From: Aplectana chamaeleonis
Lineage: Eukaryota; Nematoda; Chromadorea; Rhabditida; Cosmocercidae
Assembly: GCA_029168955.1 (NCBI GenBank)
Contig: JAPDOI010001061.1
Coordinates: 124,001 to 188,000, forward strand
DNA: 64,000 nt
Direction of reading: 5' to 3'
The position numbers and the translations under genes are program-made. Below are positions 25,683-58,842 of the stretch, in pieces (the stretch's first letter is position 1; each line of letters begins with the position of its first letter). The notes under the pieces were generated by a model. That model did not search any database and was not told where the DNA came from. It was given only the letters and a program-made list of their open reading frames with translations.

Positions 25683-27302
25683 TATACTTGTTATCCGAAG
25701 GTAATTCCTCCGGATAATGGATCGATTCGGATAGATGCCATTTTAAATTTACCGGATATTGGTTCTGATCTCAGATAAAGCGTTTCATCTAATTTTTGGA
25801 TATTGGATCAGATTCAGATAATGCCATTTGCTTCCAATGATCTTCTGATACGGATAATCCAGTCGGATAATTCTGGATATTATCGGAACAAAACCTCAGG
25901 GACCCAACACTGAAACACACACACAACATACACACGTACACACACACATACACACATACACACATGTACACACACACAACGTACACACACACGTGCCACA
26001 CATACACACGTACACATACACACATACACAATCATACACAAACACACATACACACGTACACCAATGCTACTACGTACACACATACACACATAAACACCTC
26101 CATACCTGGGCCACACACATACACACGTGCCTGTCTACACGTGCACACATACACACACATGAACACACATACACACATCTGCCACATATAACACACACAT
26201 ACACACTGTACACATACACACTGTACACACCCTGCAGTATGCCACACATACACACATACACACGTACACATACACACGTACACACGTACAATAGCGATAC
26301 CACAATGTACACACACATATGCCACACACATATGTGCACCACCTGTCTGCCTACACACATGTACACCAATACATCTACGTACACACATACACACATAACT
26401 CTACGATACCACATATACCTGTCTACACATGACACATGTACACATTGCATATTTTACATACACATGTACACACACATACACACATACACAATGTATTATT
26501 AATGTACACGTAATGGATTACTGTCTACCACACATACAGCACTACATACACACAGTGTGCCACACATATACACACACATACACACGTACACATACACATA
26601 TACACACATACGGCTATGTACAATTTCATACACACATATTGTACACACATATCACACGTATTACATTTTACACCCATTGGCCATACACACTGTACACACA
26701 TACACACATGGCACACATATATGTACATATATATACCACATGTATGATATACATGTATTACACAGATATATTATATATATTATATTATTTTATACATATA
26801 TATATTATTGTATGACTTAACACACATGTACACACATACATATGTCTATACACACATTATATCTATATATATTATCTATATTCAAGGTTATTAGCATACA
26901 CATATACATTCATACATACGTTCATACATGCATGCAGTTCACACATACACACACACACACTCTTTCCTTACATTTAACCTAAAATGAACCGTATTTTTAT
27001 CCGTTTTATCCGTTTTTATCCGGATTTTATCCGATTTTACGCAAATTTTTATCTCGTTTTATCCGTGGTTTTTATCCGATTTTTATTCTGTTTTATCCGT
27101 TTCTTTATCCGATTTTATCTCGAAGATTTTGACCCTTCGGATAATGGTTCGATTCAGATAAATGCCGATTTTAAATTTCCCCGGATATTAGTCTATCGAT
27201 TCCAGATAATGCGTGTTTTCAAATTTTCGGATATCGGATTATCCGAATCTCGGATATCCTGGTCGGATATCCAAAATGGAGTGATTCGGATACTAAGTAT
27301 TA
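25683..27302. mobile_element. TTATCCG-word element with 8-bp TSD, carrying a microsatellite
   Basis: Flanked by CGGGCCAC at 25,675-25,682 and 27,303-27,310. The left end is TATACTTGTTATCCGAAGG and the right end CGGATACTAAGTATTA. The outer 200-300 bp at each side are TTATCCG/CGGATA words, for example GATTCGGATA and TTTTATCCG runs. A ~1.05-kb ACAC/ACAT microsatellite occupies the middle. Sister elements without the microsatellite are at 40,667-41,252 (586 bp) and 54,709-55,320 (612 bp). Confidence 0.85.
25914..26970. repeat. Interrupted ACAC/ACAT/ACGT microsatellite
   Basis: About 1 kb of ACACATACACAC, ACACGTACAC and related steps, shifting to TATATA between about 26,740 and 26,880. Long ORFs on both strands (Thr-His-Thr-Tyr or Val-Cys-Val repeats) are artefacts of the repeat. 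The tract lies entirely inside the element at 25,683-27,302. Confidence 0.9.
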
Positions 27303-27334
27303 CGGGCCACACGAGCCTCTCCTCGCCTGACCAC

Positions 27335-27450
27335 TGTGCCTCTTCTTCTTTGCAACCGCAAAAGAAGGAGTCAACACAGGCGGTCAGTGAAGTGGGGCGA
27401 CCAGCGTTGAATTCCTGTCCATAGATCCATTGTAGTTAACCTCATTCATG
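27335..27450 (-). mobile_element. A-family 3'-end fragment
   Basis: TCTTCTTCTTTGCAACCGCA at 27,341 followed by GGGGCGACCAGCGTTGAATTC and CCATAGATCCATTGTAGTTA matches the A1 3' end at 19,525-19,605. It is a short degenerate LINE end next to the microsatellite element. Confidence 0.6.
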
Positions 27451-28350
27451 ACCACACGTTTCCTACCGGTGGGATACGCGTTGACTACCACTTCGGATCC
27501 GCGTGTCCTGCAACCGGTGGGACACGTTTTTGAGAAATTAAGTTCTCTGGTCACACGGGCAGAGAAATTCCAAGCTTTCTCAGGTCCAATGTATAAATCC
27601 TTACCCTAGACTCGACTAGCGGAAGTCAAGGTCCGCGTCAGCCAGCTCCCAGCAACTCATAGCAGCAAGTCTTCAGGTTTTGTGTGGAAATGGGGCAATA
27701 CCAGTACGAAAAAATTGCTTTGCAAAAACAAATTTTCAAGCGCATTATGAGCTTTTTTTCTTCCATTTAGCTTAAGCTACCAGCAAGGAACCTGGAGTTG
27801 GAATCTCGTTATGTTCACTCTGGAAACGTGCCTCTACATTATTGGCTACAAATACCAAAATCGGCCCTGACCTTCGATTTTCTTCCATTCCAAACTTTTT
27901 ACCAACCATAACCAAACGTAAACCATACAAAATTTGAAAACAGATAAGGCAGGTTCCTAAATCTGCAACTCAAAGCAGAAAATATCACAGGAGCAGTGGT
28001 GGCAAAATTATATTCCCGCTTGACCCTGTCATGATAGAAAGAGTTCCATGAGCAGAAAATTCTGATAAAATGCTTTAATTCATTGATAGCTACACAATAA
28101 AGATGAAAAAACGCATAAATCGATTTTCGCTGGCGTACCATCTGTCAAGCTCGCGTGTCCCATAGGTGAGACACGGTCTACGGTGACGCAATATTGCAAC
28201 ACGATCCAAACGTACAGCCACCGCAAAATCAGGCGTGGGTTGAGCATTGTGGGTTTCGCAGGAAAAATTCGATAAGTGGCGCCGAATTGTGGCAGGGACT
28301 ACCTCCAGTCTGCGCATGCGTCGGGTAAGCTGCCGCCGATTTTGCTTTAC
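27451..28350. other. No gene recognised
   Basis: This segment separates two A-family fragments (27,335-27,450 and 28,355-28,700) that would be nearly adjacent in the element. It may therefore be an insertion of about 0.9 kb. CGTGTCCCATAGGTGAGACAC near 28,153 and the ACCGGTGGGA(T/C)ACG repeats near 27,464 and 27,512 are the only patterns seen. Confidence 0.3.
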
Positions 28351-28354
28351 GTAG

Positions 28355-28700
28355 AGCATTAGCTACGTTGAGGGTCCACAGCGCAGCGAGGCGGGGGTGC
28401 ATCTAGCCCACCTATCAAGTTGAGACCCTGACTGGCAATCTTGAGGCGGCAAGATGCCCTTGAACAAACTTGGTGGGCTCCTCGCACAATAGAATCAGAA
28501 CGAGCGTTTTCGCTTTGAGTCGTGCCGTCTTATGAAGTCGACCTCGTTGGAAGACTCGACAAAGTGCGTTCTGCTAACTCCCTCTTTAGGAGGATCGAGT
28601 ACTCGGTGGGTGGTTGGGCTGTTTGAGGATATTTCGCTGCTTGCCAGCAGAAGTCACTACCACGGGCATTAAAGCTTCATATTCTGGGCTCCACGGCCAC
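28355..28700 (-). pseudogene. Degenerate A-family RT C-terminus
   Basis: Aligns with A1 19,735-20,060: CAGCGCAGCGAGG...GTGCATCTAGCCC, TTGAGACCCTGACTGGCAAT, TTGGTGGGCTCCTCGCACAA, GAGTCGTGCCGTCTTATGAA and the TCGGTGGGTGGTTGGGCTG block. It is too decayed to translate. Confidence 0.6.
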
Positions 28701-29020
28701 TACCCCGCTGATGACGCCGCCAATCTAGCAGGGTGTTGGGCGGCTTCTTGACAGAATTGATGTCAACTAGCCAGACGAGCAGGTTGCCTAGCTACACGAA
28801 TCTAATGTGGTGACGCCAAAATACGTGATATACCCGGTGACTAGCGCCCTCCTACGACGCGCCAAAGTACGCTGCGCAACGCGACGAACGACGCGACGGC
28901 TGGCAGTTAAGTGATGTTATCACACTCACTACCCAGATCGGTTGCATTTACACTAAAAGAAAATCGAACACGTTTTCAGAGCATAAATAGGACCCACCCC
29001 TCTTCTATGTCTCAGGATTG
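28700..29020. other. No gene recognised
   Basis: The first part may extend the A-family relic. The rest, rich in CGACG and GCGAC, shows no open frame or clear repeat ends. Confidence 0.3.
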
Positions 29021-29021
29021 A

Positions 29022-29312
29022 AGGCAGCATACACGCTCGTAAAAGTGAATGAGATAACTACGGAAATAGAATGGTATGGCTCATAACACAACGCCTACGC
29101 GATTTGAAGCGTCCAAAACGGCCCAGCACTCCTGTTTTAGAGGATGGCACATACAGGGCGGAGAAATACAGAGCCAGGACCAACTTCTTACTCGTGTAGC
29201 GTCACTGTGGGGTCGCTTTTGACGCTTCAAAATGCGTAGGCGTTGTGCTCCAAGCCATACTATTCTATTGCCGTCGTAATCTCAACCGCGTTTACGTGCG
29301 TGTATGTTGCCT
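29022..29312. mobile_element. TTAA-type MITE, family AGGCAGCA, copy 3 (short)
   Basis: The left end AGGCAGCATACACGCTC follows TTGA (decayed TTAA). The right end GCGTGTATGTTGCCT precedes TTAA at 29,313. Inner arms are complementary over TGAGATAACTACGG...AATAGAATGGTATGG. At 291 bp it is a shortened relative of 872-1,355. Confidence 0.65.
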
Positions 29313-29558
29313 TTAAGGCAAATTTGAAGCCAAGATGAGGCATGCCTTCAAGGACGAGATCGTACTTCCCGCGACGTGAGACCGCGATAGCGCATATTAA
29401 GCATGTCGATATTCAGTCGTTTTAGATAATAAACACTGAGTCACGGGAAGTACAGTCCCGGCCAACACAACAGAACCAAACCCACGAACAGAGCATGGTT
29501 CAAATCATCTTTTTCAAGACTTGAGACAAAATTGTGGAACGAGTACTCGAAGGATGGC

Positions 29559-29747
29559 TTACTTTTCCATTGGGGAGGCTTGCATCACCCATTTCACGCT
29601 TTCGGACATGCTCTCCAAATCATCGGTAGCTTCACTGTAGGCCTCAATTTGTTCCGACAATAACTCCATCATCTGCGACAGAGTAGTTTCATCGTTATCC
29701 TCCTTTACGTCCTCATCCTCATTATTAACACTGCCGCCCGACTCAGT
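29559..29747 (-). CDS. Candidate terminal exon, acidic protein
   Basis: On the minus strand ATATTTCAG, a textbook nematode acceptor, ends at 29,748. It opens a 62-codon frame reading TESGGSVNNEDEDVKEDNDE, then TTLSQMMELLSEQIEAYSEA, and stopping after MQASPMEK. The composition is protein-like: acidic, then amphipathic helix. The frame extends upstream of the acceptor to 29,888 but that part is less convincing. No polyadenylation AATAAA was found nearby and no family is recognised. Confidence 0.4.
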   Translation of the reverse strand, partial: TESGGSVNNEDEDVKEDNDETTLSQMMELLSEQIEAYSEATDDLESMSESVKWVMQASPMEK

Positions 29748-29968
29748 CTGAAATATTATTGAGCCGAATTTTATCAGAACCAAAATCCACTCGATTTCGA
29801 AGGAGACTTCTGCGATTGCGACAAATATTGGCGTCCCAAAATAGATTTCGGCCAGAACGCTGTAAAACTTTTGGTGGATAAAACTCATTAGAACTAAACC
29901 ATGGCTTCACAGACCAGGAACGGGAGTGACTTTGGAGTCGGGTAGTAACGTTTAACCTTACATTGGAC

Positions 29969-30235
29969 CAGGGTCGAGCGGATCGCGAAAATTCCGCACC
30001 AAAAATGAAAATTTGGTGAAGATATCCCAGACACTCTCGATATTCTTAGTCAACAAAACGAAGGATCGTAGCGCTGCTCAAGTTTTAGACGCTTGAGCTC
30101 CACTACTGAACCAATTTTCAGCGTCTGACAGACCCGGGGGGGGGGAGTGGCAAAAAATTGGATGTTAGGAAAAAATTTTGATTGTGGGGGGTCGCTCCGA
30201 TTTCGAGAAATCGCGCAACGCCCTGCTTGACCCTG
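29969..30235. mobile_element. CAGGG-type hAT-like MITE, GGGGTCG words
   Basis: Begins CAGGGTCGAGCGGATCGCG and ends CGCAACGCCCTGCTTGACCCTG. Flanks CATTGGAC (29,961-29,968) and CATCGGAC (30,236-30,243) are an 8-bp duplication with one change. The interior has GAAAATTTGG/GGGGGGTCGCTCC words like those of 42,864-43,251. An 8-bp duplication and CAGGG terminus fit hAT. Confidence 0.7.
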
Positions 30236-30641
30236 CATCGGACTATGAAACTTTTCGCCTCGCGGGAAACAACTATGAAATCACCGGCGGCGCAGCCAGG
30301 GCAGTGCGGATTAAAGTTGGACCTCAACAGTGACATGCACAGAAGTTAATGACTTGCATTTGCGTACACGGTAGCAAAGGATAGCCACAGAATTATTTAT
30401 GTTTGAGTGAGCCTAAACGGAGAGGCGAACATTGATTAAATTGGTGCAACCGCTGTTGTGTTCTGTGGACACAATGTGGCGTACAACCTTTTATTGGAAA
30501 ACAGAGGCCACAATAAGTGGCATTGTACAGCAACGGAAGGCGGCGAGTCTTGTCCTGCTTGGTGTCGACGCCGTCGATTCGATTAGTAGTGCAGGAACAG
30601 TGGCGGTCTTCTTCTTCTTTGCAGCCACGGAGAGGGTTCTA

Positions 30642-30849: not shown

Positions 30850-31151
30850 CAGGGATGAGCGGAGTTCTGCGTTTCGCGTTCCGACACCCGCAGTTTCGCG
30901 CATTTTTGGCATTCCGCGTTCCGCATTCCGAAAACCGCAAAAAACGCTGAGGAATACGAAAATTTCGGATCATCTGGGAGGGGGAAAACATTAGATAATT
31001 TCTCAAACTTTCCGCGCTTCGCGTTCCGAAAGCCGCATTTCCGCGCATTTTCAGGCGTTTCGCGCCCGATTTCAGAAACCCGAAAAAAATTTTGTTCCGA
31101 AACCCGAAAACCGATTTCCGAAATTTCATATTTTTGTTCCGCTCATCCCTG
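30850..31151. mobile_element. CAGGG-type hAT-like MITE, TTCCG words, 8-bp TSD
   Basis: Ends CAGGGATGAGCGGA and TCCGCTCATCCCTG. The flank ATGCAAGG is exact on both sides (30,842-30,849 and 31,152-31,159). The interior is a degenerate array of TTCCGC, TTTCCGAAA and CGCATTTCCGCG in both orientations. The same element sits at the identical position in A3 (58,742 onward). Confidence 0.85.
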
Positions 31152-31159
31152 ATGCAAGG

Positions 31160-32326
31160 GTGCACCTGGCACGCCTGCCAAGTTCCATCTCTGTCTTGCT
31201 GACCTTCGGAGGTGCGACTCCCAGGATGGAGATTATAGCGACTCTGCTCAAGTGTTCTTTCACGAATCGGGTATGCTCCGCGCGCAAGAGACGGAGGCGT
31301 TCTTGTTGTGCTTCGGTCCATCTCTGCACATCTACTTTCGACGGAGCATCGGCGAAAGGCTTTCTGATACATCTCTCTCTCTCTCTCACCGGGTTTAGTA
31401 CTCTTCGCGATGGATGATTCGGCTGCTTCATGATGTTAGTGTACATTTGTTGCGCCTGGAGTTGGCAGTGGCCCCTAACAGGCAATGTGCGAGCTTCGGC
31501 GTGTAGGTGCTCAGTTGGAGAGCTTTTAGAACAGCCTGTTGCAATTCGCAGAGCACAATTTTGGACGCGCTGCAGCTTGGACCAAGATGAGTTCGACACG
31601 ATGTGCTGCCAGACTGGCGCAGCATACTCCAAGGCGGGTTGCACAATAGCCTTATACGTGGTCTGGATAGTTTCTTTATTGCATCCCCAGGACGTTCCAC
31701 CGAGAGCACGCAGGACGTTGAGTATTGTTTTCACTGTGGCATGCTTCTGCTCAGTGTTCTTATGAAACTTCAACGGAGGATCCAACACGAGTCCAAGTAG
31801 TTTGGGGAATCGGGTGGCCTGCAATTGAGTTTCGTCCCATTTCACAATAGGATGGGCACTGTGCTCTGCATTATCAGTGGAAAAGACAGTGAGATCGAAT
31901 AAGCATTTCAACTCGATCAAGTGGTCATTGATCTTACTGGCGGCTACCTTACTATCGCGATCTCGGCACAGAATAGTAATACCATCCACGTATGCAACGA
32001 CATTGATGCCTTGAGGGGGAACGGGCACATCTTCTAGATATAAACTAAAAAGTGCAGGCGATAAAACTCCTCCTTGAGGACACCAGCGGCGATGGGGATG
32101 CTATTGAAAACATGTCCCTGGAATAGCACATTTGCCCGACGTCCTTTAGTGAAGGCAGTATCCACCGCTTCTGCCATGGCTTAATGGTAGACTTCAACAG
32201 ACTCTCTGATAGTAGGCCAAGATTGACAGTGTCAAATGCCTTTGTTAAGTCGAGAGCCACACCAACAGTACGTTGGGGTTTGATGGCATTGAAACCGTCC
32301 AGAACATAGCTCACAATCTCCAACAA
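31160..32326 (-). pseudogene. A2 reverse transcriptase, catalytic-motif mutant
   Basis: The 32,045-32,326 frame gives LDGFNAIKPQRTVGVALDLT and KAFDTVNLG. The 31,126-32,028 frame gives INVVAYVDGITILCRDRD, the position of YADD in A1, so the second catalytic aspartate is glycine here. The segment FFDDKMLKISASKSS of A1 is missing. The frame continues through ALGGTSWGCNKETIQTTYKA, LEYAAPVWQHIVSNSSW and the PSRRVLNPVRER block. Confidence 0.75.
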
Positions 32327-34553
32327 AGCCGTAGCTCGATCAAGTAGTCATTGATCTTACTGGCGGCTACCTTAATATCGCGATCTCGGCACAGAATAGT
32401 AATACCATCCACGTATGCAACGACATTGATGCCTTGAGGGGAACGGGCACATCTTCTAGATATAAACTAAAAGTGCAGGCGATAAAACTCCTCCTTGAGG
32501 ACACCGAAGCGAGCGATGGGGATGCTTCATTGGAAAACATGTCCCTGGAATAGCACATATTGCCTTTCGACGTCCTTTTAGTGAAGGCAGTTTCCACCTG
32601 CTTCTGCCATGTGGCTTAATGGTGAGACTTCAAGCAGACTCTCTGATAGTAGGCCAAGATTGACAGTGTCAAAATGCGCTTTGTTAAGTCGAGAGCCACA
32701 CACCAAACAGTACGTTGGGGTTTGATGGGCATTGTCAAACCGTCCAGAACATAGCTCACAATCTCCAACAAAGCCGTAGCTCGATCAAGTAGTCATTGAT
32801 CTTACTGGCGGCGCTATCACGCTTAATATCGCGATCTCTCGGCACCAGAATAGTAATACCATCCCACGTATGCAACGACATTGATGCCTTGAGGGGAACG
32901 GGCACATCTTCTAGATATAAACTAAAAAGTGCAAGGAGATAAAACTCCTCCTTGAGGGACACCATGGCGGCGATGGGGATGCTATTGAAAAACGATGTCC
33001 CTGGAATAAGCACATTTGCCCGACGTCCTTTAGTGAAGGCAGTTTCCACCGCTTCATGCCATGGCTTAATTTGGTAGACTTCAACAGAACTCTCTCTGAT
33101 AGTAGGCTCAAGATTGACAGTGTCAAATGCCTTTGTTAATTGCGAGAGCCACCAACAGTACGTTGGGGGTTTGATGGCATTGAAACCGTCAGAACATAGC
33201 TCACAATCTCCAACAAAGCCGTAGCTCGATCAAGTAGTCATTGATCTTTGGCAGCTACCCCGCTAATATCGCGATCTCGGCACAGAATAGTAATATCACG
33301 TATGCAGCGACATTGATGCCTTGAGGGAACAGGCACATCTTCTGAATATAAACTAAAAGTGCAGGCGATAAAACTCCTCCTTGAGGACACCAGCGGCGAT
33401 GGGGATGCTATTGAAACTTATGTCCCTGGAATAGCATTGCCCGACGTCCTTTAGTGAAGCGGTATCCGCTTCTGCCATGGCAATGGTAGACTTGTGAACT
33501 CTCTGATAGTGACTAAGATTGACAGTGTCAAATGCCTTTGTTAAGTCGAGAGCCACACCAACAGTACGTTGGGGTTTGATGGCATTGAAACCGTCCAGAA
33601 ACATAGCGCTCACAATCTCCAACAAAGCCGTAGCTCGATCAAGTAGTCATTGATCTTGCATGGCGGCTACCTTAATATCGCGATCTCGGCACACAGAATA
33701 GTAATACCATCCGACGTATGCAACGACATTGGATGCCTTGAGGGGGAACGTGGGCACATCTTCTAGATATAAACTAAAAAAGTGCAGGCGATAAAACTCC
33801 TCCTTGAGGGGACACCCAGCGGCGATGGGGATGCTATTGAAAACATGTCCCTGGAATAGCACATTTGCCCGACGATCCTTTAGTGAAGGCAGTTTCACCG
33901 GCTTCTGCCATGAAGCTTAATAGGGTAGAACTTCAAACAGATTCTCTCTTTCTCGATAGTGGAAGGCCAAGATTGACAGTGTCAAATGCGCTTTGTTCAG
34001 TTCTAGAAAGCCACACCAACAGTACAAGTTTGGGGTTTGATGGCATTGAAACCGTCCAGAACATAGCTCATTGCAATCTCCCAGCAAAGCCGCTAGCTCT
34101 GATCAAGTAGCTCATTATTGATCTTACTGGCGGCTTTACCCTTAATATCGCGATTCTCGGCACAGAATAGTAATACCATCCACGTATCGCAGCGACATTG
34201 ATTGCCTTGAGGGGGAACGGGCAATATCTTCTGAAGATATAAACTAAAAAGTGCAGGCGATAAAACTCACTCCTTGAAGAGGGACACCAGCGGCGATGGG
34301 GATGCTATTGAAAACATGTCTCCTGGGAATAGCACATTTGCTCCTGAGCGTCGCTAGTGAAAGGCAGTTTCCACCGCTTCTGCCATGAGCTTAATAGCGT
34401 AGACTTCAGCAGACTCTCTGATAGTGAGGCCAAGATTGACAGTGTCAAATGCCTTTGTTAAGTCGAGAAGCCACACCAACAGTACGTTGGGGTTTGATGG
34501 CATTGAAACCGTCCAGAACATAAGCTCACAATCTCTCAAAAAGCAAAGCCGTA
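31914..34553 (-). repeat. Six-unit tandem array of an RT segment, ~409-463 bp units
   Basis: Units start at 31,914, 32,335, 32,780, 33,225, 33,634 and 34,097 (CTCGATCAAGTAGTCATTGA or a variant). Each runs from the KINDYLIE region back through YVDG, GVPQGG-equivalent and DLTKAFD to the LLEIVSYVLDG region. Junctions are identical: AACAAAGCCGTAG joined to CTCGATCAAG. Units 2-6 differ from unit 1 mainly by many 1-4-base insertions that destroy the frame. Confidence 0.9.
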
Positions 34554-40666: not shown

Positions 40667-41252
40667 TACACTTAGTATCCGGTTCAATTCTTTTCGGATA
40701 TCCGACCGGATATCCGAGATTCGAAAAATCCTATATCAGAAAAATCGAAAAAACGCATTATATGAATCGAACCAATATCCGCAAAATTTAAAATCGGCCT
40801 TATCTGAATCGAACCATTATCCGAAGGGTCAAAAACTCGGGTAAATCGGACAAAATTTGGATAAACTTAGGATAAAATCGGATAAAGTTCGGTTAAAATC
40901 GGATAATTTTTGGATGAAACCAAATAAAATTGTTATGCATACTTGAAGTTTGTATGTGAACATGCGCCAAATGCAATGATGTATTACTGTTTGCTCAATT
41001 ATGGATGTTTTCAAAGGCTTGCCTTTAGTACCTGGCTTATTTTTCACCGTTTTGCCCAAACTTTGTTCCGAAAATATCCGACCGGATATTCGTATCCGAA
41101 TCATTGGAAATATGGCATTATCTGAATCGACCCGTTATCCGAAAACTTGAAAAAGCACATTATCTGACTCGAACCAATGTCCGGAAAATTTAAAATCGGC
41201 ATTATCCGAATCGATCCATTATTCGAAAAATTTTCATCGGATAACAAGTATA
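40667..41252. mobile_element. TTATCCG-word MITE, 8-bp TSD, upstream of A2
   Basis: Exact CTCTCTAC at 40,659-40,666 and 41,253-41,260. Ends TACACTTAGTATCCGGTT and CATCGGATAACAAGTATA. The interior repeats TTATCCGA, TCGGATA and GGATATCCGA around a unique central block (near 40,940-41,060). The A3 side carries the same element, inverted, at 54,709-55,320. Confidence 0.85.
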
Positions 41253-41296: not shown

Positions 41297-42800
41297 TAGG
41301 ATAAGAACTTAGGCCATTGGTATACTTCAGCGACAGCCGGTCGCCGGCGACGGACACGGCGACGGAGTCTTCGTCGCCGCATTGAATTCCACGCGCTTTT
41401 GCGGACTAACATTTCCGCACACGCGCATCTGCACAGCAAACAAAAAAATCGATTGTGGTCATGTTATCACAGTTTATGTGAGATTCCGTGACATTTCCAG
41501 TTGTTTTCACATTCTGTCACAATATGATCATCATTATAATGCGTCGGCTTGGAATATAATCCATACATTCGACAGCCTAGACAAATGTATAAATGAAAAG
41601 AACGATTCATAAGTAATTGAATGGAATAATGACAGCACATAAATACCCAATTGAAAAAAACTGCAGGTAAACAACTAAACCGAAACGTACAAAACTATAA
41701 TGTCTTTTGATGTCAATTTGCTGTCCATGATATTCCAAAATTACATAAAACAGCATGAAATAGATGAATCCGTGGAGTCCAGAAGAGCCAGCGACAGCCC
41801 GTCGCTGTGCGCAGCACAGCGACGGGCCGTCGCTGCGGCGACGGGGTGTACCAGGGTTACGTCAGTGAAAACTATAACACCCCTCAGCGACCTGTTCCAG
41901 CGACGGGCGCACGCAAACTGATCCCGCGGCCGACCCTGCCTTAGCATCGGTGCTGGTCCCGACGTTTCATAGTTGTCAGAAACAACTCGCTGCAGCGACG
42001 AGGGAGGTATACCAATGGCCTTAATGGCCAACGGCTGTAACAGCCAGCTCCGAACGCGGTCGCGTCGCGGTCCCGCGAATTCGTAGTGGAGCGCGCTATC
42101 CCCACCGGAGAATTTCTGAAGAATAGTGGGCACGGAAGGATTGCTGCGTCTATACTTGGAACTATCATTTGTTTGTGGGTATCAGTGATGCAGAAATCTG
42201 GTGTTATCACTATTTTCGTTGAAAAACAACGCGTGTGTTCATTTTGAATACATTTCATTGGGGCTGAGCGAATTGAACTCTTGACTGATTATACTTCTTG
42301 AAAAACAATTCTTATCAGAATAAATAGTTATGACAAGGTTCTAATTGTTCTCTAAATCATTTGTGCCACCATCGGGGCAGTTCTAATTGTTTCTTGGAAT
42401 TATATGAAAAAAAAGGTTTCTTTATTCCTATGGCACAACTCAGTGTGGCTTGTTTTTCAACATTTACCCTCTCTTTGTTACATATCCTTATTCTTCTTCT
42501 CGTTATAGTGATTGACCATTGCGTTGATTGAAAAGTTAATCATATTACGGATCGAAGGACATCAAATTTGCATTTTCGGTTACCTTCTGCCCGATTTAGG
42601 CTTAGGATTGGCGGAACCCTAAAGAGATGTGATGTGATCTGCTTGTAAAAAGTGTCAAAATCTAATCCTCACACATGCTTAATCAGCTCTTTCGCAACCG
42701 CCAATAGCGCGCTTCAGTACGAATTTGCGCGACCGCAACGCGGCCGCGTTCGGAGCTGGCTGTTACAGCCGTTGGCCATTAAGTTCTTATGTGTATAGGC
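41297..42800. mobile_element. GCGACGG-word element with nested MITE
   Basis: The left end TATAGGATAAGAACTTAGGC then CATTGGTATAC is inverted at the right as GTATACCAATGGCC (42,009), interrupted by a TTAA MITE, then TTAAGTTCTTATGTGTATA (42,779-42,797). Inner words are CAGCGAC, CGTCGCTG, GCGACGGGC in both orientations around 41,325-41,380, 41,785-41,850 and 41,985-42,000. No target duplication could be fixed. Confidence 0.5.
42025..42778. mobile_element. TTAA-flanked MITE, TIR TGGCCAACGGCTGTAACAGC
   Basis: TTAA at 42,021-42,024 and 42,779-42,782. The terminal repeats extend about 60 bp: TGGCCAACGGCTGTAACAGC then CAGCTCCGAACGCGG at the left, mirrored at 42,735-42,778. It lies inside the right terminal repeat of the GCGACGG-word element, so it is the younger insertion. 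Confidence 0.75.
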
Positions 42801-42863: not shown

Positions 42864-43251
42864 CAGGGTTGAGCAGCGTTGTGGCTGGTCACAACGGGGG
42901 GTCGTAAAATTTTTAAATTTTTGGGACAAAATGAAAATTTGGGAGGGGTCGTAAAACTTTGGAAAAAAAATTAGGATTTTTTCAAACCTGTATGATAAGG
43001 TAAAATGAGGTAGGTGTAGTCAGTCGCAAGCGAGGTGTATGCATTTTTAACAATATAAAAGCAGATTATATACAAAGAAGCTGTTTAGAAAATTGACACT
43101 TTTTTGACAAAACTGACAATTAGACACTAAATAAAGCTTTAAAAATTTTTGTTCCCAGGGGTCGTAAAAATCTGGATTTTTTTTTTGAAAAAGGAAAATG
43201 TGGGGGGTCGTAGCCGCGACAGAAATCGCCACAACGGCCTGCTCAACCGTG
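42864..43251. mobile_element. CAGGG-type hAT-like MITE, GGGGTCGTAAA words
   Basis: Begins CAGGGTTGAGCAGCGTTGTG and ends ACAACGGCCTGCTCAACCGTG. Flanks TGTGCAAG (42,856-42,863) and TGTGCACG (43,252-43,259). GGGGTCGTAAAA recurs at 42,898, 42,951, 43,158 and 43,203 (variant). Both this element and 29,969-30,235 lie beside a shared flank, GAGG(C/T)CCAACTTTAATCCGCA (43,269 and, inverted, 30,308-30,330). Confidence 0.7.
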
Positions 43252-43462: not shown

Positions 43463-45286
43463 CATCACAACCTTTTGTTCATTATTAATCCATCTTCAAT
43501 TTCATTCCGTCCCATAACATTTAACTTCAGTATTATATTCTGCTATCATGATAGTGAATACACATATAGAGTTAGGTCCGTGGCCGGTGACCTCAAGAAA
43601 AAACGTTCAAATTCAAACCTCGGCTAGCGCGGCGGTTTGATTCTCAGAGATTGAGATTTAAGCCGCCACGCCAGCAGCAGTTTGAATTTACACGAATAGC
43701 GCCTTAGATGACGATGGCCTTTCCCGAAGCCTTATTCAAATGTGGTCGCGGCGCCGGACAAGTTCTGTGAGGGTTTACTAATTCGCGAATCTGCCACGAA
43801 TCTTCTGCTAATCGGTCTATGAAATAATCAAATGGGAGAGTTGCTCTGACAATGAGGCAGAGTGTGATATTTAAGTAACTCACCCTCGAATTTTCAAAAC
43901 TAGTCGTTTCTGACGACGCATCCCCATCCTCCTTCATTTCGATCCTTGCCATCTTCGGTGGAGATGCACCCAATGTGACCGGATCATCACGACCACCCTC
44001 CATCGCCGGCCTAAAGAGACGATATTCAAAGATGACAAAAAATGACGGTGCAATGTCAAATAAATCGCCCTCAGAACTTGGGACCGCGCTTTCTGCTTGC
44101 CCAATACCGCGTGACCAATCGCTGCCCGTCTGGGTCGCCCGAAATGGTGAATCGGGTCGCGCGAAAAATTTAACATTATACACTAATCGTCCGTTATTGT
44201 ACATTCGCGTGCAAATTCGCTGCACCGGGAAAGGAATATTTCGTCATCCGGGTGGCTGGTAACAATCGAGGGGTTAGCGGGTCCAGGGTACGACACTAGA
44301 TATGGCCAAGGTCAATTTTACTCACAATCAGACCCCCTTCTGCAGGAGCGAAAATTGGCGATTTTCTCAGACCCCCCCAGGAGCGTCATTTGGTCAGTTT
44401 TTTTGTTGTTGTAAGATTTTAAGAAGAGTAATATGATCGAATTCTTCGTAGAAACTGAATGTAAACAGTGTATACTCCCATTTAGTATCGTCTACTCGGT
44501 GTCCGGACGGAGCTCAGACCCCCCTCCCTGTGGATATCCACACCGTGCCGTACCCTGTGCGGGTCGCGCGGAGCGGAATCTGGCCCCAATTTTTGAGTGG
44601 CCAGCTAACCCCTTGATTGTTATCAGCCACCCGAATTGCGAAAATTGCCTTTACGGAGCAGGGAATTTGCGCGTGAATGTGCAATAACGGACTAATAGAA
44701 TACAATGTACAACTTTTCGCGCCACCCGATTCCCAATTCCGGGCGACCTAGACGAGCAGCGATTGGTCGCCCGGTATTGGGTAACCGGAAAGTGCGGTCC
44801 CAGTTCTGAGATCAACCAGAATAAACAGAACAATATATTCGAAGCAAATGTGAGGTAAAGTGAACTCGCACCAGGGTCAAGCGGTGTTGCCAAATTTAGT
44901 CGTGCTGCGTGAAAGGTGAATGGCGCCGGGACCAAGTGGTCCCAGCACGATTATCACGGGTTGCATGATGTAGTAGCCGTAGTCCGCAAATGTGGACCGG
45001 AATTTAATTCCGAGAACGACAGTATATTGTTACACAACCAGCCGCTTGGCCCCGACTCGCACAAAAACAAGAGCCTCTAGTAACCAAACTGAACTACACA
45101 AATCCCATCCAATAAAAAAGTTTCTGAGGGAATTTAAAACATTAAACACATCGCAGAGATCTCTAAACAGCGAAAAATCTCGCCACGCCTTTCTGGTATT
45201 TCATTTTTTTTAAGGTTCAGTAGGGTTGAAATCCTATGGAAACGGATAGATGGACACTCACATGACAAAATGTCAAACAATATTGG
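43463..45286. repeat. Inverted-duplication unit, left copy
   Basis: Matches 52,675-54,326 in reverse orientation. Shared landmarks are CATTATTAATCCATCTTCAA, the small exon below, GTCATTTGGTCAGTTTTTTT (44,385), CTCGGTGTCCGGACGGAGCT (44,496), and AAACTGAACTACACAAATCC (45,087), ending CAAACAATATTGG at 45,286. Compared with the right copy it holds an extra ~400 bp (about 44,590-44,990), which includes an inverted relative of 44,086-44,285. Confidence 0.75.
43816..44010 (-). pseudogene. Small spliced-exon-like unit in the duplicated segment
   Basis: Minus strand: acceptor CTCTTTAG before 44,010, ATG at 44,003, frame MEGGRDDPVTLGASPPKMAR then IEMKEDGDASSETTSFENSR, donor AGG|GTGAGT at 43,884/43,883, a 67-nt intron, acceptor TTTCATAG at 43,817. 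After splicing the frame reads TD-stop. The right copy (about 53,566-53,770, plus strand) keeps both splice sites but has an early stop after the ATG. Function unknown. Confidence 0.35.
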
Positions 45287-46155: not shown

Positions 46156-46157
46156 GC

Positions 46158-48766: not shown

Positions 48767-50407
48767 CAGGAATGTGCGGCAAACGATTTTGAGATTTCGG
48801 CAAACGGCAATCGGCAAGAAAATCCCAAAAACGGCCGGCAAACGGCAAAAAACCTCCTTCCTTAGATTGACCCAAAAGTTATTCACATATGCCGCTCTTC
48901 TTTAATTCCTTTTTCTCCAGTAGTTATATCAACATTGTAATAATTCCAATTCTAGGGAGTAGTTCCATTTCAATGCATCAAATGGACAAAAATAAGACAT
49001 CTGGGACCTCATAGAGCTGCGGCTCCGCAGAAGTGCAGCTGCGGCTCCAAGGTGGTGCCGCTGCGGCTCCGCGGTGGTGCCGCTGCGGCTCCCCGATCGG
49101 TGGCTGCGCTCTGACAAAAATAGGACCGACTGCAAGTAACTCATATGATTTGAGTCATAATACAACTGGGTGAACCTACGAACAAAAAACACACCTGCGG
49201 TGCTTGCGTCCTTTGCCTGATAGGAACATAATGTATCCCCGTTATTGTGACCCAGGAGATACGGAATGTACGTCAAATTTGGGTTGTTGAACCAGCAACA
49301 ACCTCGTTCTAAAAACCCACAACAGTGAATCGTAGTCAACGGGGTCCGCTGATGCATCCTCGCGGAGTTCGTGCGGTTTTAACACAAAACTGCAACGGTA
49401 CTACCGCGGCAATGTCGCGGCGTTGACGATCCTCAAGACATTGCAACGGAATCTCTATGGCACAGTAATCATCTCGGAGCTGCTGCGGTACTACCGTGGA
49501 ACTATCGCGGCAAGTAGAGGGTTGCGGTACTTTCCTGACACTGCCGCGGTACTTTCCTGACACTGCCGCGGTGCTTTACTGACACTGACGCGACATACTT
49601 TCTCAGAGTCCCTGCCCACGTGTGTTTCACAAATGCTTCTGCGTCGTACTAATGCTTCCTGCTTCTTTTAGCTACACCAGAATCTGTCGAAACTCTGGTA
49701 CAGAAACTAAAGCACCACATGGGAGTTAGACTATTTACTGTCAACTTAACGCGAGCTGACAGTCAAAACGCAAATAGTATAACAATAGAGAAAAAGATGG
49801 TAAGCTTTTTGAAACGTTCTCCGTTGGACTTCTTCAATAGCTATCCATCTTTTTCCCCATTCACACACTATTTCCAAGTTCTCTGTCAGATCGCGTTACG
49901 TTGCAGTTCTGCGCAAACTTACCGCGAGCTGAAAAAAGAGCGAAAAATCTTCTAAATTTTTTTCTATATCAATATTTTTCCCAAGAAAGACAGAATGAAC
50001 CATTTTCAGGAATTTTTTTCACACTGTGAGAATCTAGTGGCCCATAACGTGGCGTGCGAGTGCGTGGTTTCAGCAATGTCTGGTCCCCCTCCCGAAAAAC
50101 GTCAAATATAAAGCTTGCGTTTAGCTGCAGTTTACACCAAAATTACCGCGAGTTTCCACGCGTTTTCAAACCCATTTACTACCACCCCAGATGAGTCGAA
50201 ACCTCGGATAACGGTTAAGCGAACAATGGATAGTCGGGTTACTCCTAGTGCCTACATGGCCGCTAGCATAGACGGCGTTTCCTTCCAGTGTTTTGCCGAG
50301 TTTTGCCGGAAAAATAACAAAAATTTCGGCAAACGACAAACGGCGAAAAAGTCCCAAAAATGGCCGGCAAACGACAAACGGCAAACGGCAATTGCCGCAC
50401 ATCCCTG
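48767..50407. mobile_element. CAGGG-type hAT-like element, GGCAAACG words, 8-bp TSD
   Basis: Exact ATTGGAAA at 48,759-48,766 and 50,408-50,415. The left end is CAGGAATGTGCGGCAAACG and the right end GCAATTGCCGCACATCCCTG. Terminal ~100-bp blocks contain TTTCGGCAAACGGCAA and GGCCGGCAAACGGCAAA in the same orientation at both ends, so the ends share a partial duplication. The 1.4-kb interior has no transposase. It includes GCGGCTCCG arrays (49,010-49,110) and GCGGTACT(A/T)(C/T)C arrays (49,390-49,600). Confidence 0.7.
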
Positions 50408-50533: not shown

Positions 50534-50539
50534 TCCCTG

Positions 50540-52210: not shown

Positions 52211-52219
52211 CACAAGCCT

Positions 52220-52560: not shown

Positions 52561-52674
52561 CGGAAGACTACAAAATTACTCCATAGAAAATGTCAGGATC
52601 ATACACTGAAATCGATGTGAAGGCAGAGCTACTATGTAACACCTGGGATATCTACACACCGGACGCAAAGAAAT

Positions 52675-54326: not shown

Positions 54327-54445
54327 AGGAGTTGTCCCGTTCTTGAAATTTGAAACAGTCACGCCACTCAACGCTTCTTGGAGGTGAGTATCCAGAGTGG
54401 AATTGGAGCCGCCGAAGGCAAGTCAAGCTCCTTCCTCGGTATGTA

Positions 54446-54700
54446 CAGGGCCTAAAACGGCCAATGTCTCCACCGTCGACTGCAGTACCTTGCGCTGCTT
54501 GCGCACAGAGCCGCGTGCAGTCCCGGAAGCAGATGAGTTTTAGCCGCCGCGCGTTGTTAGCACGCGCGGCCGCCGCGGAGCATCACTCGTCGATCGCGAC
54601 GGATAGCCAAAACTCATCTGCTCTCCGACGCACGCATGCGGTCGCGCAGCGCGTGGTACGCAGTCGACGGTGAGACATTGGCCGTTTTATGGCCCCCTTG
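54446..54700. mobile_element. MITE with TA flanks, TIR CAGGGCC/CAAGGGGGCC
   Basis: Left CAGGGCCTAAAACGGCCAAT and GTCTCCACCGTCGACTGC; right GCAGTCGACGGTGAGACATT and GGCCGTTTTATGGCCCCCTTG. TA flanks lie at 54,444 and 54,701. The left arm of the big palindrome lacks it: CTTCCTCGGTATGTA continues straight into GAGAG there, which confirms a TA-type insertion. Confidence 0.75.
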
Positions 54701-54708
54701 TAGAAGAG

Positions 54709-55320
54709 TATACTTGTTATCCGGGATGAAAATTTTTAGACATAATGGATCGATTCCGGATAATGCGCGATTTTAAATTTTCCGGGATATTGGTTCGAAA
54801 GATCAGATAATGTGCTTTTTCAAGTTTTCAGATAACGGGTCGATTCAAAGATAATGCCATATTTCCAATGATTCGGATACGAATATCCGGTCAGTTATTT
54901 TCAGGAACAAAGTTTGGGCAAAACGGTGAAAAAATAAGCCAGAGTACTAAAGGCAAGCTCTTTGAGAAACATCCATAATTGAGCAAACAGTAATACATCT
55001 AATTGCATTTTGGCGCATGTTCACATACAAACTTCAAAGTATGCATAACAATTTTATTTGGTTTCATCCAAAGAATTATCCGATTTTAACCGAACTTTAT
55101 CCGATTTTATCCTAAGTTTATCCAAATTTTATCCGAAGTTTACCCGAGTTTTTGACCCCTTCCGGATAATGGTTCGATTCAGATCAAGGTCGATTTTAAA
55201 TTTTCCGGATATTGGTTCGATTCATATAATGCGTTTTTCGATTTTTTCTGATATAGGATTTTTCGAATCTCGGATATCCGGTCGGATATCCGAAAAGAAG
55301 TGAATCGGATACTAAGTGTA
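54709..55320. mobile_element. TTATCCG-word MITE upstream of A3
   Basis: Ends TATACTTGTTATCCGGG and CGGATACTAAGTGTA. Flanks TAGAAGAG and GTAGAGAG are a duplication blurred by one indel. Collinear with 40,667-41,252 in reverse, including the unique central block with GCGCATGTTCACATACAAAC. Confidence 0.8.
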
Positions 55321-55794
55321 GTAGAGAGCCCCTGTCCCTAGGATAGTCCCAGAATTATTTATGTTGGAGTGGACTTGAACTGAGAAGCGAGTATTTATTC
55401 AAATGTTGAAACCGCCATGGCGGTTCGAGCGGTGCCGGCTGGGCGTGCCGCGCGGTGAGAACTGTTTAGTCCACCGCGCTTGTGGTGAGGTCTCTGAAAG
55501 ATACCTAAACCTCCATGGCGGTTGTTGTGATATAGATGTGTATCACAAGTATAGACGTGTAACACAAGTAGATGCACGTATCACATCGTATCGGTATCAG
55601 TTGTTGTGATGTTATTCATAACTTGGTATCATTGCATTGAAGCCCTATAAATACCGCTACTATGTTCTAGTGATGCTCAGTGCTCAGTTCAGTCTTCGAC
55701 TTCACCAGCCTCGCCAGCAACTCGACTGCCTCCTGGACTCGACTGAAGACCGCCAGACGGCTGCCGAGATGTCGTACGTTCGTGCCGTGGCCGT

Positions 55795-56502
55795 GTGGAT
55801 GAAAGAAGGCCACCTCCGTGCAAACCAACGTCAATCCCTCTGCGGAGAGGGTTTTGTTCATGGGAGAGGTGCTGGCTGGCCGCAGCTCTCCTAAAGATCC
55901 TATTGCAAGGAGCCGGCGTCGAGAGGAATCCAGGACCTGCAAAGAAGAAGAAGTACCCATGGGCCACATGCGGCAGAGATGTCACTTGGAATGGAACCAG
56001 CGTCCAATGTTTTGGATGCCAAAGGTGGGTGCACTTGTCTTGTTCGGGTCTCAGTTCTGTGAAGCACCACGATTCCTCCTTTCGTTGTATTGTGTGCTCC
56101 GCCTCCAGTAACTCCAATTCCTCATCTACCAACCGCCCCCTCTCTATTGTACATATCAATCTCAACGGCCTTTGCGCCAAGCTTTCTGAATTATCTCTCT
56201 TTGCCCGTACTCATCACCCGGATGTTATCATGGTCCAGGAGACCAAACTCTCTCCCTCTGCTACCTCTAGACATCCAAACATCCCGGGCTATACTGCATA
56301 TCATACTCCTAGGTCATCTCAAGGAGGCGGAGTCTCTACTTTTGTTCTGTCCTCTCTTCCCTCTCACATTATTCCAAACTTTCTCCCTCAATTGTCTTTG
56401 CGGGTGACTTCAATGCTCACACGTTCTGCTCGTCGCTCGATTCTGATGCTAGAGGAAATGACGTCGAAGAATGGGCGGATCAGTGCGACCTGGTTATTCT
56501 AA
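55795..56502 (+). CDS. A3 leader, 2A-like motif, PHD finger and endonuclease start
   Basis: A 235-codon frame. MDERRPPPCKPTSIPLRRGF is followed by a hydrophobic WLAAALLKILLQ segment and GAGVERNPGP (about residues 39-48). The C4HC3 PHD finger spans about 55-98 (CGRDV, CFGCQRWVHLSCSGL, CIVC). The endonuclease starts with IVHINLNGLCAKLSELSLFA and DVIMVQETKLSPSA, then drifts out of frame after SSLPSHIIPN. The N-terminal layout matches LINEs in which 2A separates a signal-like leader from the enzyme. Confidence 0.75.
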   Translation: MDERRPPPCKPTSIPLRRGFCSWERCWLAAALLKILLQGAGVERNPGPAKKKKYPWATCGRDVTWNGTSVQCFGCQRWVHLSCSGLSSVKHHDSSFRCIVCSASSNSNSSSTNRPLSIVHINLNGLCAKLSELSLFARTHHPDVIMVQETKLSPSATSRHPNIPGYTAYHTPRSSQGGGVSTFVLSSLPSHIIPNFLPQLSLRVTSMLTRSARRSILMLEEMTSKNGRISATWLF

Positions 56503-57577
56503 ACGATGATCAGCCCACTCGTCTCCCTGCCAACGGCCGATCTTCCAGCCCAAACATCTCCCTCGTCTTTTCCAATCTCTCTGCTTGCTCTTGGTCAACA
56601 TCCACAACTCTTTTCAGCGATCACATCCCTGTCTCTGTCGATATTGATCTCTCTAACTCTCTTGCTCCCTATACAGGTGTTCGTCATCGTTCTTATTTTA
56701 ATTTAGGCCTTGCAGACTGGAGCCTGTTCAGGGAGCTTGCGCTCCGCCAAGCGGCTTATTATCCGTGGAGTGGCGACGTACACCATAAGGAGCGCCACCT
56801 ATCTGATGCTATCCTGAAGGCTATGAAAGCTGCAATCACCGAAGGTCGCGTCAAGAAAGGGACGCAAAGAGAGCTGCAGATCACCGTGATCCAGACATCG
56901 CTGAGCTGGAGAATGAGATCAGGAAGGACCTTGACAGGCATAGGAAGGAAACTTGGAAAAAGATCACTGAGGAGATGAACTTCAGAAATTATGCAGCAGC
57001 CACGTGCAAGGCCTTGAAAAGGATCTCCGGAAAGTTCACCTCCGCCAACAATTCCACGATTGAATTTGAAGGTGGAGTCTTCAAGTCAGGGAAGGAGGCC
57101 GCAGATGCTCTTGGGAAGCATTTTTTCATCACTAGAACCAAAAGAGAGAAGCAGAACAGAATAACTGTACGGGAACTCTGTAAGTTGCCTCTCATGGATG
57201 TAGATGATGCAGTCACGCCTGCACAGGTCGAGAAGGCAATAAAGGAGATGAGCAACTCGAAGGCAATAGGGCCGGACGGTTTGAGCCCAGCAGTCCTGAA
57301 GAGACTGCCCAGTGAACTACTGCCCCTTATTGCTGACGTCACAAACACATCGTTTCGTTCATGTACTCTACCCCAAAATTGGAAAGCCGCTCGCGTTATA
57401 CCACTGCCGAAGCCGGGAAAATCATCATCCACGACTAAAGGGTACCGGCCGATCAAGTCTACTCTCACCCACTGCCAACGTTGCCGAAAAACTGGTTGTG
57501 GAGGAGCTGGCCGAACTCAGCAACAAGCAACAGCATCAACATGGTTTCCGTAAATTAAGGTTTCCACCACTACGGCC
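56503..57577 (+). pseudogene. A3 endonuclease end, linker and RT N-terminus
   Basis: Pieces in several frames: endonuclease remnants near 56,510-56,720, the linker (HLSDAILKAMKAAI region; frame 56,975-57,553 with LKRISGKFTSANNSTIEFEG), then KAIGPDGLSPAVLKRLP and NWKAARVIPLPKPGK of the reverse transcriptase. At least four frameshifts. Confidence 0.65.
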
Positions 57578-58741
57578 TTGTTGGAAATTGTGAGCTATGT
57601 TCTGGACGGCTTCAATGCCATTAAACCCCAACGTACTGTTGGTGTGGCCCTCGACTTAACAAAGGCATTTGACACTGTCAATCTTGGCCTACTATCAGAG
57701 AGTCTGTTGAAGTCTACCATTAAGCCATGGCAGAAGCGGTGGAAACTGCCTTCACTAAAGGACATCGGGCAAATGTGCTATTCCAGGGACATGTTTTCAC
57801 TAGCATCCCCATAGCCGCTGATGTCCCTCGAGGAGAAGTTTTATCGCCTGCACTTTTCAGTTTATATCTAGAAGATGTGCCCGTTCCCCCTCAAGACATC
57901 AATGTCGTTGCATACGCGGATGGTATTACTATTCTGTGCCGAGATCGCGATATTAAGGTAGCCACCAGTAAGATCAATGACTACTTGATCGAGTTGAAAT
58001 TTTTATTCGATGTCACCGTCTTTTCCACTGATAATGCAGAACACAGTGCCCATCCTATGGTGAAATGGGACGAAACTTAATTGCAGGCCACCCGATCCCC
58101 AAACTACTTGGACTCGTGTTGGATCCTCCGTTGAAGTTTCATAAAAACTCTGAGCAGAAGCAAGCCACAGTGAAAACAATACTCAACGTCCTGCGTGCTC
58201 TCGGTGGAACGTTCTGGGGATGCAATAAAGAAACGATCCACGTATAAGGCTATTGTGCAACCCGCCTTGGAGTATGCTGCGCCAGTCTGGCAGCACATCG
58301 TGTCGGACTCATCTTGGTCCAAGCTGCAGCGCGTCCAAAATTGTGCTCTGCGAATCGCAACTGGCTGTTCTACAAGCTCTCCAATTGAGCACTTACACGC
58401 CGAAGCTCGCACATTGCCTGTTAGGGGCCACTGCCAACTCCAGGCGCAACAAATGTACACTAACATCATGAAGCAGCCGAATCATCCATCGCGAAGAGTA
58501 CTAAACCCGGTGAGAGAGAGATGTATCAGAAAGCCTTTCGCCGATGCTCCGTCGAAAGTAGATGTGCAGAGATGGACCGAAGCACAACAAGAACGCCTCC
58601 GTCTCTTGCGCGCGGAGCATACCCGATTCGTGAAAGAACACTTGAGCAGAGTCGCCATAAACTCCATCCTGGGAGTCGCACCTCCGAAGGTCAGCGAGAC
58701 AGAGATGGAACTTGGCAGGCGTGCCAGGTGCACCCTTGCAT
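57578..58741 (+). pseudogene. A3 reverse transcriptase, YADG mutant
   Basis: Frame 57,578-57,814 has GVALDLTKAFDTVNLG. Frame 57,727-58,080 has INVVAYADGITILCRDRD, with glycine in place of the second catalytic aspartate, and the same deletion after FLFD as A2. Frame 58,195-58,767 has LEYAAPVWQHIVSDSSWSKL and LNPVRERCIRKPFADAPSKV, ending in the MITE. It could not catalyse reverse transcription. Confidence 0.75.
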
Positions 58742-58842
58742 CAGGGATGAGCGGAACAAAAATATGAAATTTCGGAAATCGGTTTTCGGGTTTGGGAACA
58801 AAAATTTTTTCTCGGGTTTCGGAAATCGGGCGCGGAACCCCT
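58742..58842. mobile_element. Truncated CAGGG-type hAT-like MITE in A3
   Basis: CAGGGATGAGCGGAACAAAA and following TTTCGGAAATCGGTTTTCGG match the reverse complement of 31,060-31,151. It follows CCTTGCAT, the same target as in A2. Homology stops near GGGCGCG at 58,840, the distal end of the right palindrome arm. Confidence 0.75.

What the first reader, a model, noticed from the sequence alone, without database searches (positions are those of the whole stretch)
25683..58842. A class of elements whose interior is a degenerate array of one short word
At least eight vocabularies occur: TTATCCG, ACTCGA, TTCCG, GGCAAACG, GGGGTCGTAAA, CAGCCGGT, GGCGAGC and GCGGCACTA. Each is arrayed in both orientations inside a bounded element. 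Elements with the same terminus carry different words. One reading is that the word is the subterminal binding motif of a transposase and switches as transposase specificity changes. That would be a modular terminus/word design I do not recognise from described families.
Basis: partly seen in the sequence, partly recalled or inferred. Interest (0 to 1): 0.8.

Follow-up and report, generated by a model that had tools for sequence, protein, structure and literature searches.

The report
hAT transposons with family-specific end words
This genome holds thousands of cut-and-paste transposon ends of the hAT superfamily that share one short tip but carry repeated copies of a word that differs from family to family and goes with the transposase, probably the address that the transposase reads.

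Summary
Five of the eight words (TTATCCG, ACTCGA, TTCCG, GGCAAACG, GGGGTCGTAAA) lie in window elements with inverted tips and an 8-bp target duplication, the last with 7 of 8 bases. GGCGAGC, CAGCCGGT and GCGGCACTA could not be bounded that way. The CAGGG-tipped elements are hAT transposons. In 28 of 41 hAT transposase loci a tip CAGGGNTGNGC was found 3' of the gene, and the word beside it follows the transposase clade: CGGAAA, CGGCAA, CAGAAA, CGTAAA, CGGTAA, CGTTAA. On a tree of 49 dimerisation domains eight words need seven changes, the minimum; 0 of 200 shuffles did as well. Some copies of three families place different words at the same positions (32, 39, 46). Five BED fingers differ at residues that match base contacts in Hermes, but are diverged overall. 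One TATACTT tip lies 3' of a hAT gene; that group is less settled. Binding is inferred. The architecture is known from Ac/Ds and Hermes; the graded series of words within one genome is the new part.

The parts
14649..14883 (.). TATACTT-tipped non-autonomous element, word ACTCGA/TTCGAAT
   Evidence: exact TSD GTGGTCAG; blastn 78% over 164 bp to the 3' end of hAT transposase locus L098, E 3e-30
25683..27302 (.). TATACTT-tipped element, word TTATCCG (10 forward, 4 reverse), interior CA-rich repeat
   Evidence: exact TSD CGGGCCAC; same tips and CA-rich interior in L072 and L073
29969..30235 (.). CAGGGTCRAGC-tipped element; word not established
   Evidence: TSD CATYGGAC, 7 of 8
30850..31151 (.). 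CAGGGATGAGCGGA-tipped short element, word TTCCG/CGGAA
   Evidence: exact TSD ATGCAAGG; 88% to L013 over its length and 88% over 146 bp to the end downstream of transposase L046, in L091
40667..41252 (-). TTATCCG element, TIR TATACTTGTTATCCG / TACACTTAGTATCCG
   Evidence: exact TSD CTCTCTAC
42864..43251 (.). CAGGGTTGAGCAGC-tipped element, word GGGGTCGTAAA
   Evidence: TSD TGTGCAMG, 7 of 8; word enrichment not significant (p 0.075)
44872..45054 (.). CAGGGTCAAGCGG / CGGGGCCAAGCGG-tipped short element; word not established
   Evidence: exact TSD ACTCGCAC
48767..50407 (.). family B non-autonomous hAT element, word CGGCAAA (GGCAAACG); 12 forward and 3 reverse CGGCAA
   Evidence: exact TSD ATTGGAAA; word at 11, 32, 39, 46, 70, 77 from one end; same tip and word as transposase locus L048
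49000..49620 (.). GCGGYACTA / GCTGCGGCTCCGCGG array inside the family B element
   Evidence: p 0.005; overlaps a roughly 360-bp interior stretch shared with family C elements at about 71% identity
54709..55320 (+). TTATCCG element, inverted duplicate of the 40667 insertion
   Evidence: TSD GTAGAGAG = reverse complement of CTCTCTAC, with one indel
58742..58842 (+). one end of a TTCCG element, other tip not seen
   Evidence: CAGGGATGAGCGGAACAAAAATATG, as at the 31151 end
41319..42012 (.). CAGCGAC/CAGCCGGT element with long tip AGGCCATTGGTATAC; superfamily open
   Evidence: relatives L069, L070 at 85-86%; no clear 8-bp TSD
230..410 (.). GCGGCACTATCGCGG array, not bounded by TSD
   Evidence: p 0.01; 84-88% over 84-85 bp to the interior of family C elements L014/L015, L029/L030
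45378..47900 (.). GGCGAGC arrays, boundaries not found
   Evidence: p 0.025; no TSD/TIR pair in the stretches scanned

Best explanation
The CAGGG-tipped elements are hAT-superfamily DNA transposons, mostly non-autonomous, and the TATACTT-tipped ones probably are too. The tip (CAGGGNTGNGC or TATACTT) is the cleavage end. The word beside it, repeated 3 to 11 times in about the last 220 bp of an end, is the family's address, read by the transposase's N-terminal BED zinc finger so that several transposase molecules dock together and only cognate ends are paired and cut. Each family has its own word because its BED finger has its own specificity; when a finger drifted, the copies in both ends changed with it. 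Shown: tips, TSDs, arrays, the word-clade link, same word at both ends, BED fingers in five clades. Inferred: that the BED finger binds the word, and that non-cognate transposases do not.
For: 8-bp TSDs (in one search seven of seven facing tip pairs had 7 or 8 of 8 without selection). CAGGGATGNGCGG 12,350 sites against 9 for the reversed pattern; CAGGGNTGTGCGTAA 6,399 against 3; TATACTTGTTATCCG 1,517 against 0. hAT dimerisation domain PF05699: 150 matches among the 150 scored of 851 candidates. Two elements with a dimerisation domain between facing matching tips and 7-of-8 TSDs: L054, L059. Word-clade table from 28 of 41 loci, out of eight scored words: A CGGAAA 92 of 93, B CGGCAA 21 of 22, C CAGAAA 34 of 36, D CGTAAA/CGTAAT 7 of 8, E CGGTAA 26 of 36 (8 are CGGAAA), F CGTTAA 7 of 7. 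Tree: 7 changes for 8 words, minimum 7, 0 of 200 shuffles. Same word at both ends in 11 of 11 complete elements examined. Word starts 32, 39, 46 in B, C and D ends. zf-BED by Pfam in B and C and at the T and G genes, D by tblastn; BED model (pLDDT 80) best matches the BED domain of ZBED1, 2ct5, probability 1.00 though E 0.047. Precedent: AAACGG in Ac, contained in family B arrays.
Against: No binding data. Word and transposase are inherited together, so near-copies make clustering easy; the independent unit is the clade, about eight, some with one tip-bearing locus (D, F, T). 13 of 41 loci showed no tip in the stretch held. The full 32/39/46 triplet is present in 5 of 14 inward-reading ends of B, C and D (B 3 of 7, C 1 of 5, D 1 of 2), and for two of three pairs of representative ends another shift gives more coincidences than none; E and F have other layouts. 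In C and E the word copy at the tip (CGGAA..) is not the array word. The BED fingers are only 30-42% identical to the first, so differences at contact sites are not remarkable in themselves. In Hermes, BED sites beyond 50 bp were not needed in cells. TATACTT is linked to a hAT gene by one 3' end (L098) plus a similar array upstream of a relative (L101); the 5' tip was not found. The TTATCCG transposase was not found.
Confidence: 0.8

Rival explanations
1. The arrays are slippage products or minisatellites that grew inside transposon ends and have no part in transposition; they track the transposase only because each family descends from one element.
For: Word copies are often 7-bp tandems; families descend from few founders; the genome has other short-period arrays, such as GCGGCACTA inside B and C elements; copies of one family vary in which sites are kept.
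Against: The same word occurs at both ends in 11 of 11 elements; some B, C and D ends place different words at the same coordinates; word copies lie mostly within about 110 bp of the ends; transposase-bearing and non-autonomous copies have the same word.
Confidence: 0.1
2. The word binds a host factor (for example a domesticated BED or CGG-binding protein) rather than the element's own transposase, serving expression or silencing.
For: Hermes needs about 200 bp of end in cells for an unknown reason, with a host factor proposed; hAT-derived host CGG-binding proteins exist.
Against: The word changes together with the transposase clade, which a fixed host factor does not predict.
Confidence: 0.07
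3. The TATACTT group is a different superfamily with 8-bp TSDs that has converged on the same architecture.
For: TATACTT is not a usual hAT tip (recalled); no complete autonomous TATACTT element was seen; the L098 3' tip could be part of a separate insertion.
Against: L098 carries a hAT dimerisation domain about 1 kb before the TATACTT tip; the window element 14649-14883 matches that end at 78%; a 56% relative has the same kind of array upstream (L101).
Confidence: 0.2

Closest known systems
Ac/Ds of maize (hAT)
   Same: Short tip, 8-bp TSD, multiple AAACGG hexamers in the terminal 200 bp that bind the transposase and impart specificity; many non-autonomous copies (PMC3260210, passages). Family B arrays contain AAACGG.
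   Different: One family with one hexamer is described there; here at least seven words coexist in one genome on near-identical tips, with mainly 7-bp spacing in families B, C and D.
Hermes / hobo (hAT) subterminal repeats
   Same: BED finger binds short subterminal repeats from about 11 bp inward, cooperatively, within an octameric complex (PMC10368747, passages).
   Different: Hermes sites (AAGT) are spread and asymmetric between ends; here many are tandem heptads. One specificity was described there.
CGGBP / hAT-19 BED proteins
   Same: hAT BED domains with diverse motifs, often with CGG, that match subterminal regions of their transposons (PMC8097297, parts 1-2 of 3 read).
   Different: Motifs there came from binding arrays across species; here a natural series of related words is tied to transposase clades inside one genome, without binding data.

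Membership tests
hAT superfamily | 8-bp target site duplication | tested here: met
   CAGGG elements: 6 of 7 facing tip pairs exact and one 7 of 8; 4 further (which listed only pairs with at most one mismatch); window elements
hAT superfamily | transposase with C-terminal hAT dimerisation domain | tested here: met
   150 PF05699 matches; a CAGGG tip 3' of the domain in 28 of 41 loci
hAT superfamily | N-terminal BED zinc finger | tested here: met
   clades B, C, D, G, T; not found for A, E, F, I with the DNA held
hAT superfamily | catalytic DDE triad | not tested
   exons were read but the triad was not mapped
hAT superfamily (TATACTT group) | autonomous copy with TATACTT at both ends and a hAT gene | tested here: inconclusive
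   3' tip only (L098); no 5' tip upstream in the 3.99 kb of L100 apart from one inside the gene; long TTATCCG copies L071-L073 show no transposase
Ac/Ds-type subterminal recognition | transposase binds the subterminal repeat | not testable with these tools
   needs a binding assay
Ac/Ds-type subterminal recognition | several copies of one short motif within about 200 bp of each end | tested here: met
   3 to 11 copies in 220 bp of 28 3' ends; both ends of 11 elements, the A ends having as few as 2 in 125 bp
hAT-19 / CGGBP subclass | CGGBP1 domain model match | not tested
   only Pfam was used

The most novel reading that the evidence does not exclude
One genome holds a natural address code for a transposase fold. 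At least six hAT families keep the same cleavage tip, and three of them include copies with the same site layout (32/39/46), but each has replaced the copies of a heptamer by its own variant of about C-R-K-N-A-A-N, differing mainly at positions 2 to 4 (GGA, GGC, AGA, GTA, GGT, GTT). The change goes with two residues of the BED finger, so the set can be read as a recognition code that keeps families from moving one another.
Probability: 0.4. Interest if true: 0.78.

Novelty: new variant of a known kind. Interest (0 to 1): 0.62.

Why it matters
How BED fingers choose DNA is, as far as I know, poorly understood; the structure read here covers one specificity (Hermes). A genome with several fingers and their natural, near-identical words makes the rule directly testable. 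It also bears on how transposon families stay separate: the tip is shared, so the array is a likely barrier to cross-mobilisation, and changing it requires many copies in both ends to change.

Tried and rejected
A TSD scan alone is weak: 14 exact 8-bp hits in the window (after dropping simple repeats) against 4 in one shuffled copy, so tips and words were required too. 'Eight separate classes' was dropped: GCGGCACTA arrays occur in the interior of B and C elements. TATACTTCRGCGAC as one class was dropped: the CAGCGAC copies read carry a longer tip (AGGCCATTGG before TATAC) and no clear TSD. Three long TTATCCG copies were fetched in search of an autonomous one; they hold nested insertions (a reverse transcriptase frame, CA repeats), no transposase seen. 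The nulls printed for stretches without a hit mean nothing and were not used. A protein search in the public collection gave one weak hit; Rfam gave none in the window at gathering scores. Seven literature searches in the CC-licensed library showed no report of this series among the titles listed; the lists were capped (for example 20 of 1,988, 15 of 43, 8 of 3,808), so this is not proof that none exists. The species was not identified.
Full report
What is there. The window lies in a 1.04-Gb assembly (contig C168); the species was not identified. Element edges were set by inverted tips and 8-bp direct repeats. Exact duplications flank 14649-14883 (word ACTCGA/TTCGAAT), 25683-27302 and 40667-41252 (TTATCCG), 30850-31151 (TTCCG), 48767-50407 (GGCAAACG) and 44872-45054; 7 of 8 positions agree at 42864-43251 (GGGGTCGTAAA) and 29969-30235. 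54709-55320 is the 40667 insertion again, in an inverted copy of its surroundings, so it is not independent. The top 7-mer is enriched over dinucleotide shuffles in 13 of 15 stretches and in 0 of 4 controls; the 25683 element scored through its CA repeat.

Copy number. CAGGGATGNGCGG occurs 12,350 times against 9 for the reversed pattern, CAGGGNTGTGCGTAA 6,399 against 3, TATACTTGTTATCCG 1,517 against 0, its other end ACTTAGTATCCGANTC 1,455 against 1, TATACTTCRGCGAC 984 against 5. Eight neighbouring locus pairs were joined: seven hold a facing tip pair, six of these (L009/10, L011/12, L014/15, L021/22, L029/30, L037/38) with exact 8-bp duplications and L033/34 with 7 of 8; L019/20 has outward-facing tips and is not an element. 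Four single loci (L013, L025, L054, L059) have pairs with at most one mismatch, which was the listing rule. Three long TTATCCG copies have TSDs, two exact and one 7 of 8.

Transposase. PF05699 (hAT dimerisation) gave 150 matches among the 150 scored of 851 candidates. I held 41 of these with flanks; a tip (CAGGGNTGNGC, at most one mismatch) lies 3' of the domain in 28: clade A 13 of 22, B 3 of 3, C 5 of 7, D 1 of 2, E 5 of 5, F 1 of 1, G 0 of 1. The word in the last 220 bp follows the clade. Totals over eight scored words: A CGGAAA 92 of 93; B CGGCAA 21 of 22; C CAGAAA 34 of 36; D CGTAAA 4 and CGTAAT 3 of 8; E CGGTAA 26 of 36, with 8 CGGAAA; F CGTTAA 7 of 7. Eight further transposase loci were read (L092-L099): L096 (A), L097 and L099 (E) show the expected tips; L092 and L093 (clade I) end in CAGGCATGTGCG with CCGAAAA, read by eye; L098 (clade T) ends in TATACTT after an array of TATTCGA/TCGAAAA; L094 and L095 show no tip, L095 having the A array. 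L091 extends L046 (clade G) and shows a CAGGGATGAGCGGAAA end 2.8 kb downstream, which could be a separate insertion; the window TTCCG element matches it at 88% over 146 bp.

Tree. On 49 dimerisation domains, with 37 labelled (three of them, L044, L067, L095, by array without a tip), eight words need 7 changes, the least possible; 0 of 200 shuffles were as low. The alignment has only 82 columns, the bootstrap had not settled, long branches meet, and near-copies inflate clustering, so the weight is in the number of clades, not of rows.

Layout. In 11 complete elements (B 6, C 2, A 2, D 1) both ends carry the same word. Start positions at the end where the word reads inward: B (L011) 11, 32, 39, 46, 70, 77, 84, 91; D (L051) 11, 32, 39, 46, 66, 73, 80, 87; C (L014) 32, 39, 46, 63, 70, 94, 101, 108. 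These are the fullest ends; the whole triplet 32/39/46 is present in 5 of 14 inward-reading ends of these families (B 3 of 7, C 1 of 5, D 1 of 2), others keeping part of it. Between the three representatives 3 (B-D), 4 (B-C) and 3 (D-C) starts coincide; 3, 3 and 4 of 60 other shifts reach as many, and another shift does better for B-D (shift 4, 4 starts) and B-C (shift -24, 5 starts). A is close (31, 38, 64, 90), F and E differ. Spacing 7 is the commonest (72 pairs: B 31, C 28, D 10, A 2, F 1). The other end reads outward: B (L021) 17, 24, 31, 38, 45, 83; C (L014) 17, 24, 31, 55, 62, 69; D 23, 30, 37, 44, 68, 75. So letters changed at several places at once while many positions stayed, in these three families. 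In C and E the copy beside the tip is CGGAA.., not the array word.

Readers of the word. BED fingers were read for B (L086), C (L087), D (L090), T (L100) and G (L105). Aligned on the invariant T, the residues at the places of Hermes 63-67 are SSTFG, NSTSG, ATTAS, KSTTN and RSTTC (Hermes contacts from passages of PMC10368747). All five differ from one another at the pair that matches Hermes S66 and N67; the place of R70 holds Y, Y, F, E, Y. The alignment to Hermes is by eye, not by structure, and the fingers are diverged overall (30-42% identity to the first). A four-sequence AlphaFold2 model of the B finger (pLDDT 80) best matches the BED domain of ZBED1, 2ct5 (probability 1.00, E 0.047).

TATACTT group. 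L098 links this tip to a hAT gene; the ACTCGA element of the window matches that end at 78% (E 3e-30). A 56% relative on contig C46 has an array with AGTCGAA, TATTCGA and ATATCCGACT upstream (L101), and a 43% relative on C16 has an array of CCGCGAT-like words (L104). Of the two other relatives fetched, L102 showed no array and L103 an unrelated GC-rich one. No complete TATACTT autonomous element was seen, so this group's place in hAT is likely but not settled.

Interior modules. GCGGCACTA copies lie inside B and C elements. A stretch of roughly 360 bp (C_L014 about 460-814) is shared by B and C elements at 69-72% identity, as an old nested insertion or an exchange of interiors would give.

Working model. 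A short shared tip is cut; the heptads beside it are the address; BED fingers of a multimeric transposase hold several heptads at once. Ac (AAACGG; PMC3260210, passages) and Hermes give the precedent. New here is the coexistence, in one genome, of a graded series of words (CGGAAAT, CGGCAAA, CAGAAAA, CGTAAAT, CGGTAAA, CGTTAAY, CCGAAAA) on nearly the same tip, each tied to its own transposase clade.

Noticed in passing
window 31912-34544: Six noisy copies of a 423-bp tandem repeat inside what reads as a retroelement; copies differ by many small indels, which may reflect unpolished long reads.
   Followed up: no
window 40667-41252 and 54709-55320: The same TTATCCG insertion, with the same target duplication, in two inverted copies of a larger element.
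   Followed up: partly
G000 contigs such as C1125, C1256, C1262, C1284, C1290: hAT-like open frames of up to 1,141 aa without stops, with BED fingers, on small contigs, unlike the exon-split genes elsewhere: another organism or a young family.
   Followed up: no
L088 (C1739:42800-46010): A complete family D element of 1,807 bp (TSD GTCCCCAA, exact) sits just upstream of the dimerisation exon of a family E transposase.
   Followed up: partly
window 42011-42793: An element with 80-bp inverted arms (93%) starting near TTAATGGCCAACGGCTGTAACAGCC abuts the CAGCGAC element.
   Followed up: no
window 12829-12990: Array of GCGATCCGCC/CCAGCGA words; 84% match over 163 bp in L001, a TTATCCG locus.
   Followed up: no
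L089 (C671:73900-77230): Repetitive open frames (a long minisatellite) fill most of the 3.3 kb before the family F dimerisation domain.
   Followed up: no
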